From an uncultured Prevotella sp. (lineage in GTDB: Bacteria; Bacteroidota; Bacteroidia; Bacteroidales; Bacteroidaceae), in assembly GCA_934230685.1 (NCBI GenBank), contig CAKQFF010000032.1, positions 1 through 14,425 of the forward strand: a DNA stretch of 14,425 bases. Direction: 5' to 3'. A model generated the notes under the pieces. It was given only the letters and a program-made list of their open reading frames with translations, did not search any database and was not told the DNA's origin. Below, one piece after another: positions 10,103-14,425 of this stretch; the first letter of the stretch is position 1; each line of letters begins with the position of its first letter. The position numbers and the translations under genes were made by a program.

Positions 10103-13006
10103 ATGAAATTAAAATCTTTAATTCTTGCCTCGATCCTGTTCATGGGATTTGGCAGTCAGGCATCAGCCTACAGCTACGAGACAGTTAAGGGCGACCCGAT
10201 GCAGACACGCATCTACACTCTGCCCAACGGACTGAAGGTTTATCTTTCTGTAAACAAGGAGAAACCTCGTATTCAGACTTACATCGCCGTGCGCACAGGC
10301 TCGCGCAACGACCCTGCCGAGACAACGGGCTTGGCACACTATCTTGAGCACCTTATGTTTAAGGGCACACGCCAGTTCGGCACATCCGACCCCGTAAAGG
10401 AGCAGCCTTATCTTGACGACATCGAGCGTCGCTATGAGCACTACCGCACCGTGACCGACCCTGCACAGCGCAAACAGCTCTATCACGAGATTGACTCTGT
10501 GTCGCAGCTCGCAGCCAAGTACTTCATTCCTAATGAGTACGACAAGCTCATGTCGAGCATCGGAGCCGAAGGCACCAATGCCTACACCAGCAACGACGTG
10601 ACATGCTATGTAGAGAAGATCCCATCGAACGAGGTGGAGAACTGGGCAAGAATCCAGGGCGACCGTTTCCAGAACATGGTGATCCGCGGTTTCCATACCG
10701 AGCTTGAGGCTGTGTACGAGGAGTTCAACATCTCGCTCACCAACGACACCCGCAAGGAGTTTGCTGCCATCGGCAAGCTGCTCTTCCCATCCCACCCCTA
10801 CGGCACACAGACCACAATCGGCACACAGGAGCACCTGAAGAACCCGTCGATAACAAACATCAAGAACTACTACAGCCACTACTACGTGCCCAACAACGTG
10901 GCTATCTGTATGGCTGGCGACTTCGACCCCGAAACTGTGGTTGCCACCATCGACAAGTATTTCGGCTCATGGAAGAAGAGCGACAAGGTGACTTATCCGC
11001 AGTTCCCCGTGCAGAAGAACCTCACATCGCCCGCAAGCGAGACTGTCATTGGCAAGGAAGCCGAGAACATAATGCTTGCATGGAAGATGGACGGTGCGGC
11101 TGCATTGCAGAACGACACACTTGAAGTTATCTCTTCAATCCTCAACAACGGCAAGGCTGGCTTGTTCGACCTCGACCTCAACCAGCCCATGCGTTGCCAG
11201 GCCGCACAGGCTTTCAACTATGCCATGCGCGACTATTCGCAGTTCATCGTCTTCGGTATGCCTAACGAGGGACAGTCGCTCGACGAGGTGAAGAACCTTA
11301 TCCTTGCCGAGATAGAGAAACTCAAGAACGGTGACTTCAGCGACAAACTCTTGCCAGCTGTTGTCAACAACATGAAGCTCGACTATCTCAACTCGCTCGA
11401 CAACAACGAGAAACGTGCTGACGCCTACGTCAACTCGTTCATCAACGGACGCGACTGGAAGACTGAGGTGGAGAAATTCGACCGCATTGCAGGCATGACA
11501 AAGCAGCAGATTGTTGACTTCGCACGCCGCCACTTCACCAATGGCTACGGCATAGTATACAAGAAGCAGGGCGAGGATGCGTCGCAGAAGAAGATAGACA
11601 AACCTTCTATCACAGCCATTCCTACCAACCGCGACATGCAGAGCGCATTCGTAAAGGAGATCAAGGAGTCGAAGGTGGAGCCTATACAGCCTCGCTTCCT
11701 CGACTTCAAGAACGACTTCACACAGACCAAGACCAAGCGCAATCTGCCTGTATACTACATACAGAACCAGCAGAACCAGCTCTTCTCTCTGAGCTATTAC
11801 TTCGAGTTTGGCGAGGAGTCGAACAAGTGGCTGCCTTTCGCAAAGGACTATTTCGACTATCTCGGCACCGACAAGCTGTCGGCCAAGGAGGTGAAGGAGC
11901 GTTTCTATCAGCTCGCATGCGGCTACAACATCAGCGTTGGCACCAACACTATGCAGATCAGACTCTACGGTCTGGGCGAGAACATGACCGAGGCACAGAA
12001 ACTCATGGAGCAGGTGGTAAACCATGCCAAGGTAGACCGCGATGCCTACAAGAAGTTTGTTGAGCAGGAGCTGAAGTCGCGCCGCGACCAGAAGCTCAAC
12101 CAGAAAGCCAACTTCAGAGCTTTGCAAGTATATGGACAGTATGGCGAGTACAACCCTCTGCGCAATGTGCCCGACAGCACCGAGCTTGTGTCTGCCGACC
12201 CACAGAAGCTCATCGACATGGTTGCCGACCTCAAGAACTACAAGCACAGCGTCATCTACTACGGTCCGCTCACAGCAAAGCAGCTCGTAGCCGCCATCGA
12301 CAAGAACCACGCCGTGGCCAAGTCGCTCAAGGACACTCCTGCCAGCAAGCACTACACCAAGCAGACCACTCCAAGCAATGAGATTTGGATTGCGCCCTAC
12401 GATGCCAAGAACATCTACATGATTCAGTATCACAACGAGAATCAGAAGTGGAACCCTGAGGACGAGGCTAAGGTGGAAGTGTTCAACGAGTACTTTGGTG
12501 GTGGCATGAACGGTGTTGTGTTCCAGGAACTCCGCGAGAGCCGTGGCTTGGCCTACAGCGCATTTGCCGACTTCGCCACACCATCACGCAAGGAAGACTC
12601 CAACTATGCCTTTACATATATAATCTCGCAGAACGACAAGATGATGGACTGCATCCGCGTGTTCAACAATATCCTCGACACTCTGCCGCAAACTCCTGCC
12701 GCATTCGAGCTTGCAAAACAGGCTATAATGAAGCGCATCGCCTCGCAGCGCATCACCAAGACAGGCATCATCTACTCATACCTATCAGCCAAGGAGCGCG
12801 GCATCGACTACGACCTTCGCAGCAAGGTTTACGCAGCTCTGCCATCATTGACTCTCGAGGACATCGTGAAGTTTGAGCACGACAACATGGCTCAGAAGCC
12901 ATGGCGTTATCTCATCCTCGGCGACGAGAACAACCTCGACATGAAAGCTCTGGAGAAAATCGCTCCTATCAAGCGAGTTTCAACAAAGGATATCTTCGGA
13001 TATTAA
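10103..13006 (+). CDS. Secreted M16 (insulinase/pitrilysin) family zinc metallopeptidase
   Basis: A 967-residue zinc peptidase predicted to act on peptides in the periplasm. An N-terminal Sec signal peptide (residues 1-22, cleavage after ASA) lacks a lipobox cysteine. The inverted zinc motif HYLEH gives H79, E82 (catalytic base) and H83. The distal glutamate is most likely E207 in ELEAVYEEF (200-208), with E200 as the conserved partner. The H83-E207 gap is about 124 residues rather than the usual mid-70s, because of an extra charged helical segment (about 100-150). The second M16 half carries the R-x-x-x-Y pair R814/Y818 in ELRESRGLAYS (809-819) and no zinc motif, the usual active/inactive duplication. 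Codon use is strongly C-ending, which suggests high expression and creates long spurious antisense frames. It is the last gene before the terminator at 13024. Confidence 0.94.
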   Translation: MKLKSLILASILFMGFGSQASAYSYETVKGDPMQTRIYTLPNGLKVYLSVNKEKPRIQTYIAVRTGSRNDPAETTGLAHYLEHLMFKGTRQFGTSDPVKEQPYLDDIERRYEHYRTVTDPAQRKQLYHEIDSVSQLAAKYFIPNEYDKLMSSIGAEGTNAYTSNDVTCYVEKIPSNEVENWARIQGDRFQNMVIRGFHTELEAVYEEFNISLTNDTRKEFAAIGKLLFPSHPYGTQTTIGTQEHLKNPSITNIKNYYSHYYVPNNVAICMAGDFDPETVVATIDKYFGSWKKSDKVTYPQFPVQKNLTSPASETVIGKEAENIMLAWKMDGAAALQNDTLEVISSILNNGKAGLFDLDLNQPMRCQAAQAFNYAMRDYSQFIVFGMPNEGQSLDEVKNLILAEIEKLKNGDFSDKLLPAVVNNMKLDYLNSLDNNEKRADAYVNSFINGRDWKTEVEKFDRIAGMTKQQIVDFARRHFTNGYGIVYKKQGEDASQKKIDKPSITAIPTNRDMQSAFVKEIKESKVEPIQPRFLDFKNDFTQTKTKRNLPVYYIQNQQNQLFSLSYYFEFGEESNKWLPFAKDYFDYLGTDKLSAKEVKERFYQLACGYNISVGTNTMQIRLYGLGENMTEAQKLMEQVVNHAKVDRDAYKKFVEQELKSRRDQKLNQKANFRALQVYGQYGEYNPLRNVPDSTELVSADPQKLIDMVADLKNYKHSVIYYGPLTAKQLVAAIDKNHAVAKSLKDTPASKHYTKQTTPSNEIWIAPYDAKNIYMIQYHNENQKWNPEDEAKVEVFNEYFGGGMNGVVFQELRESRGLAYSAFADFATPSRKEDSNYAFTYIISQNDKMMDCIRVFNNILDTLPQTPAAFELAKQAIMKRIASQRITKTGIIYSYLSAKERGIDYDLRSKVYAALPSLTLEDIVKFEHDNMAQKPWRYLILGDENNLDMKALEKIAPIKRVSTKDIFGY

Positions 13007-13023
13007 TTGAAAATTATATTGAA

Positions 13024-13084
13024 AGTGTGGTAAAACTCTATAGAGAGTCATCTTCTATAGAGTCTTATCACACTCTTTTTTTCT
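13024..13084 (+). terminator. Strong rho-independent terminator after the M16 protease gene
   Basis: An outer 10-bp stem (13024-13033 with 13065-13074, one G-U pair) and an inner perfect 10-bp stem (13035-13044 with 13054-13063) are separated by a single A/C mismatch. The loop is 9 nt (13045-13053). The hairpin is followed by CTTTTTTTCT, a run of seven T. It starts 17 bp after the stop codon. Confidence 0.92.
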
Positions 13085-13086
13085 CC

Positions 13087-13274
13087 ATTTGTTCTTCGTT
13101 CATCTTCCGTTCTACCTTCGTTCATCCTCCGTAGTGAACTCGATCTGCCTCCGTTATGAACTCGATCTGCCTCCGTTCGTTCTTCGATAGTTTAACGGAG
13201 GATGAACGGAGGATGAACGGAGAACGATCGAGAACCTATCGAGAGGCGAACGAGAAGCTATCGAAGAAAATAAC
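13087..13274. repeat. Array of exactly 11-bp units with orientation switch
   Basis: From 13098 to 13262 the sequence divides without gaps into fifteen units of 11 bp, each starting with G and ending with C, so sixteen CpG steps fall at exact 11-bp spacing (13097/98 to 13262/63). Early units are pyrimidine-rich, for example GTTCATCCTCC (13120-13130). Later units are purine-rich, for example GGAGGATGAAC twice (13197-13218), which is the exact reverse complement. The switch lies around the unit at 13186-13196. Two 22-bp double units (13131-13152 and 13153-13174) are near-identical. A partial unit precedes the array and a 12-bp unit follows it (13263-13274). Perfect 11-bp inverted copies also occur at 13180-13190 and 13257-13267. 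It is non-coding by context; 11 is not a multiple of 3. Confidence 0.9.
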
Positions 13275-13302
13275 GATGACCACAAAAAGCAATTAATTTT
13301 AC

Positions 13303-13343
13303 TCTCTCGGCAGGAAAAAATATTTCTCTCGGCAGGAAAAAAA
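13303..13343 (+). repeat. 18-bp direct repeat, period 22 bp
   Basis: TCTCTCGGCAGGAAAAAA occurs at 13303-13320 and again at 13325-13342, followed by a further A. The two copies are separated by TATT. The period is twice that of the neighbouring 11-bp array, but the phase does not continue from it. Confidence 0.8.
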
Positions 13344-13365
13344 TTGCCCATACAGAAACAACGTG

Positions 13366-13518
13366 GTCAAAATGTCATTAGTCATTAAGTCATTAAGAAT
13401 TTGAAGTTGCAGTCATCCCTTATAGTATAATAAAAATATAATCATATTTTTATTATACTATAGAGCAAAAAATACATTCCCAATTTCTTAATGACTTAAT
13501 GACTAATGACATTTTGAC
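13366..13518. repeat. Nested inverted repeat: 34-bp perfect arms around a 19-bp perfect inner hairpin
   Basis: The outer arms 13366-13399 and 13485-13518 are perfect reverse complements over 34 bp. Each is itself built from a short repeated motif (GTCATTA or GTCATTAA, three times per arm). The inner stem 13421-13439 pairs perfectly with 13444-13462 over 19 bp around the loop AATC. Spacers of 21 and 22 bp separate inner and outer stems. The whole 153-bp element is symmetrical and contains no coding sequence. It looks like a MITE or an intergenic palindromic element; no target-site duplication is evident at its edges. Confidence 0.85.
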
Positions 13519-13762
13519 ATTCTGTTGGTTCTTCTATACAAACATTGAAGTTTTTTGACTTATTATTCCATTTTGAAACAAAAATTCAATTGGTGTTATA
13601 AAAATTAACTGTTTTAATGTTAACAAAAAAAAAAAACGCATCATTCTTCTTAATCGCTGTTAATAAATGATAGGATATATATGTTTTTATTGTACATTTG
13701 CCATATAATTGTTTTATAAACGATTATTACTACTTACTCTATTTACCAAAACTAAATAAATT
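13519..13762 (+). other. AT-rich upstream region of the susC-like gene
   Basis: No gene is visible in this 244-bp stretch. It contains a homopolymer of twelve A (13625-13636), a candidate promoter (13693-13700) and a predicted leader of roughly 55 nt. The rest is AT-rich sequence without strong repeats. Confidence 0.6.
13693..13700 (+). promoter_or_regulatory. Candidate -7 promoter element of the susC-like gene
   Basis: TACATTTG matches the Bacteroidetes -7 consensus TAnnTTTG and lies 62 bp upstream of the ATG at 13763. A canonical -33 TTTG is not seen 19-21 bp upstream, so an activator or an alternative sigma factor may be involved; that is inference. Confidence 0.55.
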
Positions 13763-14425
13763 ATGCAAAAAGGACATGCTTTAAAGCCCTTTATGAGGGT
13801 TGGCTTGACTACACTCTTGCTTAGTTCTGCAATTGTAGCTAATGCACAGAACGCTACAGTTAAGGGTGTTGTGAAAGACGCTTCCGGCGAACCTGTTATA
13901 GGTGCTTCCGTGAAGGTTAAGGGTTCTAATACCACAGGCACAGTGACTAATCTTGATGGCGATTTCTCGCTCAATGGAGTGCAGAAAGGCCAGACCCTTA
14001 TCATCACCTATATCGGATGCAATCCGCAGGAGGTGAAATGGACAGGCCAGACCCTTGACATCGTATTGAAAGACAACTCACAGAGCCTTAATGAGGTGGT
14101 TGTTGTAGGTTATGGTACACAGAAGAAGGCAAACCTTTCTGGTGCTGTGGCTTCGGTTGACGGTAAAGTTCTTGAGAACCGTCCTATCACCAACATCGGA
14201 CAAGGCTTGCAGGGTGTTGTGCCTAACCTTAACGTAAGCGTTGGCTCAGGTGCTCCTGGCCAGTCTTCATCATTCAACGTCCGTGGTAACACATCTCTTA
14301 ACGGCGGTAGCCCTCTCGTGCTCGTTGACAACGTGCAGATGGATGCCAACCTCGTTAACCCTGACGACATCGAGTCAATCTCTGTATTGAAGGATGCTGC
14401 TTCTTCAGCAATCTACGGTGCACGT
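13763..14425 (+). CDS. SusC/RagA-type TonB-dependent outer-membrane receptor, N-terminal part (runs off the right edge)
   Basis: SusC-like proteins are outer-membrane beta-barrels that, with a SusD lipoprotein lid, import glycan fragments or peptides using TonB energy. Only the first 221 residues are present, and the frame is still open at the last base. A Sec signal peptide spans residues 1-28 (cleavage after ANA, before Q29). A carboxypeptidase-regulatory-like domain follows (about 31-104; GVVKDASGEPVIGASV at 35-50, TNLDGDFSL at 62-70). The TonB-box region is NEVVVVGYGTQKK (110-122). The plug domain begins near 123, with FNVRGNTSLNGGSPLVLVD (171-189) and the family-typical DIESISVLKDAASSAIYG (202-219). 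A susD gene is expected just beyond the window, and the substrate cannot be told from this part. No anti-sigma/ECF pair or hybrid two-component gene adjoins it on the left. Confidence 0.96.
   Translation, partial: MQKGHALKPFMRVGLTTLLLSSAIVANAQNATVKGVVKDASGEPVIGASVKVKGSNTTGTVTNLDGDFSLNGVQKGQTLIITYIGCNPQEVKWTGQTLDIVLKDNSQSLNEVVVVGYGTQKKANLSGAVASVDGKVLENRPITNIGQGLQGVVPNLNVSVGSGAPGQSSSFNVRGNTSLNGGSPLVLVDNVQMDANLVNPDDIESISVLKDAASSAIYGAR

What the first reader, a model, noticed from the sequence alone, without database searches (positions are those of the whole stretch)
13087..13274. Gap-free array of fifteen 11-bp units with a CpG at every junction and a mid-array strand flip
Sixteen CpG dinucleotides sit at exact 11-bp intervals from 13097 to 13263. 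Unit sequence varies strongly, yet length, first base G and last base C never change. Units are pyrimidine-rich on the left and purine-rich on the right, and GTTCATCCTCC (13120-13130) reappears twice as its exact reverse complement (13197-13218). Constant length with variable interior suggests selection on spacing (about one helical turn) or a copying mechanism with an 11-nt step, rather than simple slippage. I know of no named element that fits. Possible roles: phased binding sites for a DNA-bending or partition-type protein, a recombination substrate, or a structured RNA downstream of the M16 gene.
Basis: seen in the sequence. Interest (0 to 1): 0.75.

Follow-up and report, generated by a model that had tools for sequence, protein, structure and literature searches.

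The report
Helical-turn-length repeat arrays in Prevotella
Between two genes of a gut Prevotella lies a string of 11-letter DNA repeats, one of many such arrays in related bacteria in which a spacing of one DNA turn tends to be kept while the letters drift, which suggests that something may read this DNA once per turn.

Summary
The array is real and not chance: 16 CpG at exact 11-bp steps, 13097-13262; the longest run in 5,000 shuffles was 6. It belongs to a large, mostly intergenic class of Prevotella arrays with periods of 11 or 22 bp. In 80 neighbourhoods not chosen for repeats, 27 arrays of period 22 fall into 22 unit families; each other period from 17 to 40 gives at most 7. The 11-bp form is abundant only in some genomes. 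Forty Bacteroidia stretches give 0 arrays at 11 and 1 at 22. CpG is not the defining trait: 12 of 22 families of 11-bp units lack it. The mid-array flip is systematic in 11-bp arrays: C-rich arm first in 22 of 23. At equal mismatch, 11/22-bp arrays are gap-free in 77 of 136 cases, other periods in 40 of 177 (weaker in the 80 loci alone). Tests for a terminator, curved DNA, a transposase link and a general RNA hairpin were mostly negative. Best reading: DNA grown in one-turn steps and held in helical register, perhaps as a lattice for a DNA-binding protein; the protein is inferred. Neutral copying with an 11-nt step is equally likely.

The parts
13087..13274 (.). the reported 11-bp array; strict CpG phase 13097-13263
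13077..13186 (+). left arm, C/pyrimidine-rich (35 C, 16 G); holds two copies of a 22-bp unit at 13132-13175
13185..13197 (.). flip point CGATAGTTTAACG between the arms; a similar stretch (CGATAGACTAACG) stands at the flip in L129 of another genome
   Evidence: by eye
13196..13274 (-). right arm, G/purine-rich (26 G, 13 C), units GAGGATGAACG, AGAACCTATCG etc.
13303..13342 (.). second repeat pair with 22-bp spacing (TCTCTCGGCAGGAAAAAA twice) in the same intergenic region
13024..13080 (+). intrinsic-terminator-like hairpin and T-run between the M16 gene and the array
10103..13006 (+). M16 peptidase gene upstream (PF00675, PF05193)
13763..14425 (+). start of a TonB-dependent receptor (SusC-type) gene downstream, running off the window

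Best explanation
The array is one copy of a class of Prevotella intergenic arrays built from units of one DNA turn (11 bp), with a sister class of two turns (22 bp). Arrays grow and shrink by local duplication in whole units. Substitutions are tolerated, but length changes that would break the helical phase are selected against, because the same face of the double helix must be presented once per turn over 50-200 bp. The likely reader is a DNA-bound protein with weak sequence preference, meeting (in the 11-bp class) two arms of fixed orientation, C-rich first and G-rich second. Shown here: the array, the class, the 11/22 length preference across many unit families, fewer indels than in other repeats, polarity of the 11-bp class, mostly intergenic position, no coding-strand preference. 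Inferred: duplication by whole units, selection as the cause of the register, and the protein.
For: Length preference: in 80 M16 neighbourhoods 27 arrays of period 22 form 22 unit families; period 21 gives 7 families, every other period from 17 to 40 at most 4. Autocorrelation in their 79 kb of intergenic DNA: lag 22 z 11.5, 44 z 6.6, 66 z 4.7; lag 20 -0.9, 23 2.0. Array-rich genomes: 43 period-11 segments in 91.5 kb intergenic (G343, stretches taken by contig number), 28 in 35.3 kb (G212); 0 in 56.5 kb from 40 Bacteroidia stretches. Position: period-22 segments intergenic in 30 of 39 (M16 loci, 8.4% of the DNA), period-11 in 45 of 50 (G343) and 28 of 29 (G212). Register: TRF score >=60, mismatch 10-40%: gap-free 77 of 136 (periods 11/22) against 40 of 177 (periods 6-60 without 11, 21, 22, 33, 44, 55), mean mismatch 21.3% in both, P 1e-9; indel/mismatch 0.12 against 0.29. 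Related loci: of five pairs picked from 124 flank-sharing pairs, L243/L246 keep the array without a gap and L237/L240 with one 1-nt gap at its edge, while bases differ. Polarity of 11-bp arrays: 22 of 23, 42 of 47, 28 of 33, 24 of 32. No coding-strand bias (11 sense-only, 14 antisense-only), as expected for something acting on double-stranded DNA.
Against: No protein was found. In the 80 M16 loci lag 11 (z 5.3) does not stand out from lags 10 and 12 (7.3, 6.1), and only 1 of 80 loci has a period-11 segment: the 11-bp form is common only in genomes I found by similarity to this array. In the M16 loci alone the gap-free counts do not support the register at score 40 (17 of 43 against 53 of 117) and weakly at 50 (16 of 40 against 20 of 68), though indel/mismatch does (0.15 against 0.25; 0.14 against 0.29); other-period arrays at score 60 are also longer (74 against 61 bp). 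Arrays of period 22 without an 11-bp signal show no polarity (10 against 8; 15 against 12), and period-7 repeats the opposite one (6 against 40). A wedge-model curvature test gives nothing (mean percentile 0.526, s.e. 0.03, 94 arrays; wedge values recalled). Unit families are so varied that a sequence-specific binder is hard to imagine. 11.0 bp is longer than relaxed B-DNA (about 10.5, recalled). Register could also be kept by repeat turnover. Three of the five related pairs do not show register: one has large gaps including a 22-nt one, two are too diverged or rearranged.
Confidence: 0.39

Rival explanations
1. Neutral or mildly selfish minisatellites produced by a copying process with an intrinsic 11/22-nt step (slippage, fold-back template switching or a repair enzyme), with no function; register is kept because turnover replaces whole units.
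For: Arrays come and go between relatives: none in the 189 bp after the M16 gene in L001 and none in the 1,857 bp after it in L002. Units within an array resemble each other (mean column identity 0.64-0.71) and consensus C columns are not better conserved than T columns (0.698 and 0.714). Little gene-context preference: 11-bp arrays in 19 convergent, 34 co-directional, 13 divergent gaps, length-matched expectation 13.2, 35.1, 17.7; convergent against divergent P 0.19. The register signal is weak in the unbiased loci.
Against: No copying step of 11 nt is known to me (recalled). Turnover should purge odd indels at other periods too, yet those arrays hold about twice as many per mismatch. Fixed arm polarity is not an obvious result of neutral fold-back.
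Confidence: 0.39
2. Two-way Rho-dependent terminator: the C-rich, G-poor arm is met first on either strand and offers a YC dinucleotide every 11 nt to the Rho ring.
For: Published rut description: 78 nt, C>G, cytosines every 11-13 nt (PMC6407284, passages); (YC)N9-13 motifs (PMC9160355, passages). Window array: 7 YC at exact 11-nt spacing within 78 nt on each strand; no 78-nt stretch of the window outside 13000-13350 does so. Polarity puts the C-rich arm first. Arrays between co-directional genes lie in the upstream half in 25 of 34, P 0.009. One-armed-like arrays have the C-rich strand as coding strand in 8 of 10 at a strong skew cut-off, P 0.11.
Against: At a weaker cut-off that is 10 of 18; YC chains: 11 sense-only, 14 antisense-only. 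Convergent gaps are not more often two-armed (2 of 19 against 15 of 34 co-directional). Intrinsic terminators occur before arrays about as often as expected: 12 observed, 13.6 expected of 50; without that length control 13 of 60 against 71 of 199, P 0.058. The window array itself sits behind an intrinsic terminator.
Confidence: 0.1
3. Non-autonomous mobile element (MITE or REP type) that carries the array around.
For: High copy number, mostly intergenic; shared centre sequences such as CCCATTTTTCGCCTATT in several arrays (by eye); copies in G297 share flanks (by eye). BrickBuilt of P. gingivalis is a 23-nt minisatellite in a MITE (PMC4596501, passages).
Against: No inverted repeat found in 12990-13560 bounds the window array. 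Y1 transposase family (PF01797) in 9 of 11 genomes with an array match and 12 of 19 without one, P 0.42. Twenty-two unit families share the period rather than a sequence.
Confidence: 0.08
4. Structured RNA: a long hairpin of one A-form turn per unit.
For: The window array folds better than all 200 shuffles as RNA (z -5.37); A-form RNA has about 11 bp per turn (recalled). Arms of the same array are more alike than arms of different arrays (P 0.006), and 5 of 23 arrays match at 9-10 of 11 positions.
Against: The difference is small on average (7.0 same array, 6.1 other arrays, 5.9 shuffled, of 11). No Rfam family reaches its cut-off. No coding-strand bias.
Confidence: 0.04

Closest known systems
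BrickBuilt MITE of Porphyromonas gingivalis (PMC4596501, passages read)
   Same: Bacteroidales, intergenic, tandem units without spacers of about two DNA turns (23 nt), 19 copies in one strain, imperfect units; the paper also mentions 22-nt tandem repeats in strain W83
   Different: One unit sequence with leader, tail and terminal inverted repeats; here many unit sequences, 11 or 22 bp, two-arm polarity, no bounding inverted repeats found at the window array
Rho utilisation (rut) sites (PMC6407284, PMC9160355, passages)
   Same: C>G strand and cytosines about every 11 nt
   Different: Strict 11.0 spacing as a tandem repeat, both strands, and no relation to gene direction found
REP/REPIN elements with RAYT transposases (recalled; listing)
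   Same: High-copy intergenic, hairpin-capable
   Different: Longer, periodic, variable sequence, no clear association with PF01797 in a sample of 30 genomes
A-tract phasing of bacterial genomes at 10-11 bp (PMC3940949, passages)
   Same: Helical-turn spacing
   Different: Discrete tandem arrays, mostly not A-tracts; no excess predicted curvature
Ordinary bacterial minisatellites/VNTRs (recalled)
   Same: Tandem, imperfect units
   Different: Period preference at 11/22 across many unit families, fewer indels per mismatch, fixed flip polarity of the 11-bp class

Membership tests
BrickBuilt-type MITE | 23-nt tandem unit | tested here: not met
   period 11 (and 22)
BrickBuilt-type MITE | flanking leader and tail with terminal inverted repeats | tested here: not met
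   inverted repeats in 12990-13560 are the terminator, the array itself and a separate element; none bounds the array. Leader and tail sequences themselves were not compared
REP/RAYT | associated Y1 transposase | tested here: inconclusive
   9 of 11 genomes with an array match, 12 of 19 without one
Rho-dependent terminator | C>G stretch of about 78 nt with cytosines every 11-13 nt | tested here: met
   both strands, 7 YC at exact 11-nt spacing
Rho-dependent terminator | placed on the coding strand after genes | tested here: not met
   11 sense-only, 14 antisense-only; position nearer the upstream gene in 25 of 34
Rho-dependent terminator | termination that depends on Rho | not testable with these tools
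   needs RNA data
Intrinsically curved DNA | curvature above that of column-permuted arrays | tested here: not met
   mean percentile 0.526, 94 arrays (wedge values recalled)
Minisatellite | head-to-tail imperfect units of about 10-60 bp | tested here: met
Known structured RNA | Rfam match at gathering score | tested here: not met
   11 weak matches in 12800-13800, all below cut-off

The most novel reading that the evidence does not exclude
The intergenic DNA of some Prevotella carries a hundred or more arrays per genome (extrapolated from 43 period-11 segments in 0.67 Mb of G343) quantised at one or two DNA turns, with fixed arm polarity in the one-turn class, kept in helical register while their sequence drifts: a phased lattice for an unknown nucleoid or silencing protein that reads spacing and strand composition rather than a motif.
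Probability: 0.27. Interest if true: 0.82.

Novelty: new variant of a known kind. Interest (0 to 1): 0.58.

Why it matters
Tandem repeats are normally explained by slippage, which has no preferred length tied to the helix. A repeat class with periods of 11 and 22 bp across dozens of unit families, and with a deficit of indels, would make a physical constraint on bacterial intergenic DNA directly testable in culturable gut bacteria. It also offers strain-typing loci and accounts for part of the repeat content of Prevotella genomes.

Tried and rejected
Rho terminator: attractive from polarity and spacing, but of the context tests only position near the upstream gene was positive; coding strand, two-armed form in convergent gaps, convergent/divergent balance and replacement of intrinsic terminators were not. 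The first terminator-deficit result (10 of 71 against 93 of 299) was withdrawn after the controlled repeat. Curvature: no signal. Y1 transposase: no clear association. Selection on cytosine columns: none seen. Arm complementarity as a rule: not met, though present in 5 of 23. Conservation of the array after the M16 gene: 30 of the 80 loci were looked at, 28 of them with a next gene to bound the gap; 22-bp arrays sit 64-73 bp after the match in five (L006, L008, L010, L013, L015), an 11-bp array in none. Rfam: nothing above cut-off. Paper searches for 11-bp or 22-bp Prevotella repeats listed no description of this class; several lists were capped, and the library lacks most subscription journals. 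PMC12306157, PMC4666352, PMC2267715, PMC6344855, PMC3940949 and PMC5771137 were only searched for terms.

Limits. Rich genomes (G343, G212, G113, G297, G001) were found through similarity to the window array, so densities there are not typical; only the 80 M16 loci are unbiased for repeats among Prevotella. The 40 Bacteroidia stretches are contig starts, several short, of genomes that could include Prevotella. In some searches only the two best candidates per genome were scored, so 11 of 398 is a lower bound. Genes were called by a simple ORF rule; most array analyses dropped segments lying more than half in ORFs (counts). Family clustering is greedy at 70%. Period-22 and period-11 counts overlap in rich genomes. 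Segment cut-offs differ between calls (13 to 18). P-values treat arrays as independent.

Full report
Observation. Sixteen CpG stand at exact 11-bp steps from 13097 to 13262; the next CpG is one base out of phase. Dinucleotide shuffles of the same stretch never gave a constant-spacing CpG run longer than 6 in 5,000. The reverse-complement copies of GTTCATCCTCC are at 13197-13207 and 13208-13218. Autocorrelation in the stretch is 0.55 at lag 11 and 0.58 at lag 22, so the unit is partly a two-turn one.

Setting. The window is from a close relative of Leyella (Prevotella) stercorea: the M16 protein is 85% identical to strain An906 (L001) and 73% to DSM 18206 (L002) (best segments). The intergenic region between the M16 gene (10103-13006) and a TonB-dependent receptor gene (13763 on) holds an intrinsic terminator (13024-13080), the array, a pair of 22-bp-spaced repeats (13303-13342) and a 38-nt inverted repeat (13366-13518).

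Not unique. In An906 (G001) the window array finds three further arrays of the same kind (L081, L083, L087), with CpG phased at 11 bp and the same Y-to-R flip. In the genus sample 11 of 398 genomes match at E<=1e-4, in the class sample 1 of 295, the centre itself (only the two best candidates per genome were scored). Those genomes hold arrays of many unit sequences, for example CTCTGCCTCCG, CAATTCAAGTC, CTCCATCGCTA, GTGAATCTTAC, ATTATAATACC. Of 22 unit families of period 11, 12 have no CpG.

A length preference. In 80 M16 neighbourhoods from Prevotellaceae, chosen for the gene and not for repeats, autocorrelation of 79 kb of intergenic DNA is raised at lag 22 (z 11.5), 44 (6.6) and 66 (4.7), while lags 20 and 23 give -0.9 and 2.0; lag 21 is also raised (7.0), and so are short lags in general (11: 5.3, between 10: 7.3 and 12: 6.1), with lags 7 and 8 forming another class (and, for lags 7 and 8). 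23 of the 80 loci hold a period-22 segment, 1 a period-11 segment. So 22 is the form seen without selection, and 11 is common only in some genomes: 43 period-11 segments in 91.5 kb intergenic of G343, 28 in 35.3 kb of G212, 5 in 17.1 kb of G297, 4 in 32.0 kb of G001. Clustering unit consensuses at 70% identity gives 22 families among 27 period-22 arrays in the M16 loci; period 21 gives 7 families, each other period from 17 to 40 at most 4. The other Prevotella stretches give 22 families among 126 period-11 arrays and 29 among 51 period-22 arrays. Forty Bacteroidia stretches (56 kb intergenic) give none at 11, and at 22 two segments or one array by the stricter rule. Segments lie mostly between genes: 30 of 39 at period 22 in the M16 loci, where 8.4% of the DNA is intergenic; 45 of 50 (G343) and 28 of 29 (G212) at period 11. 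Shared ancestry of one unit does not easily explain a shared period among so many unit families.

Register. With Tandem Repeats Finder on the Prevotella intergenic DNA held, period 11/22 arrays and other periods have the same mismatch level at score 60 or more (21.3%), but indels per mismatch are 0.12 against 0.29 and gap-free arrays 77 of 136 against 40 of 177; at score 50 it is 107 of 190 against 100 of 311, at score 40 131 of 242 against 214 of 520. The other-period arrays are longer at score 60 (74 against 61 bp). In the M16 loci alone indels per mismatch are 0.15 against 0.25 (score 40) and 0.14 against 0.29 (score 50), but gap-free counts are 17 of 43 against 53 of 117 and 16 of 40 against 20 of 68, so there the register is not supported by the simpler count. 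Of five related-locus pairs (G113 against G212) that I chose from 124 flank-sharing pairs, two keep the array in register while bases change (L243/L246 gapless; L237/L240 with a 1-nt gap at the array edge), one shows large gaps including one of 22 nt, and two are too diverged or rearranged to judge.

Polarity. Of 23 two-armed arrays in five genomes and the window, 22 have the C-rich arm first. For 47 skewed period-11 segments with a clear reverse-complement partner (of 86 tested), 42 have it 3' of the C-rich arm. Cruder counts agree: 28 against 5, 24 against 8 inverted repeats (some of those 8 are not made of array units). Arrays of period 22 without an 11-bp signal show no polarity (10 against 8; 15 against 12); the 35 against 5 at lag 22 overlaps the 11-bp set. 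Period-7 repeats have the opposite order (6 against 40), as have 8 (2, 10), 14 (2, 23) and 21 (0, 10), and other intergenic inverted repeats lean to the G-rich arm first (140 against 217). Order is therefore a property of each repeat class.

What it is not, as far as tested. A Rho terminator predicts coding-strand bias, two-armed arrays in convergent gaps and fewer intrinsic terminators; none was found, although arrays between co-directional genes do lie nearer the upstream gene (25 of 34, P 0.009) and the rut-like composition is present. Curvature is no higher than in column-permuted arrays. Arms of one array are only modestly more alike than arms of different arrays, with 5 of 23 nearly identical, so a hairpin is not the general rule, although the window array does fold well (z -5.37). 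Y1 transposases do not clearly track arrays. No Rfam family reaches its cut-off.

Mechanism. The remaining facts (preferred length, free letters, no preference for the coding strand, intergenic position, fewer indels) fit a constraint on the DNA helix. Commitment: growth by whole-unit duplication, with helical phase held by selection, most likely through a bound protein (0.39). The neutral alternative with an 11-nt copying step is equally likely on this evidence (0.39). The test is indel spectra among close strains.

Novelty. Minisatellites in Bacteroidales are known; BrickBuilt (23 nt) is the closest, and 22-nt tandem repeats in P. gingivalis W83 are mentioned in that paper (passages read). 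A class with periods of 11/22 bp across many unit families was not found in the searches named in Tried and rejected. I file it as a new variant of a known kind.

Noticed in passing
window 13303-13342: A second repeat pair with 22-bp spacing in the same intergenic region.
   Followed up: partly
window 13366-13518: 38-nt arms, 97% complementary, made of GTCATTAA-type 7-8-bp repeats around an inner palindrome (13421-13462): a MITE-like element.
   Followed up: no
Prevotella intergenic DNA, L001-L080 and L109-L248: Period-7/14 repeats are common and, unlike the 11-bp arrays, have the G-rich arm first (6 against 40 at period 7).
   Followed up: partly
L001 7908-8096 and L108: Another repeat with GCCCAGGGC/GCCCTGGG-like palindromes where the M16 contig of An906 ends; a similar one stands in L108 (by eye).
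   Followed up: no
L129, L137, L196 (G297): Three dispersed arrays share flanking sequence by eye, so copies may have spread together with neighbouring DNA.
   Followed up: no
L008, L010, L013, L015 just after the M16 gene: An AAAGGNNNCCTTT-type 22-bp array starts at the same distance (64 bp) after the gene match in four species, so some arrays look old and inherited.
   Followed up: partly
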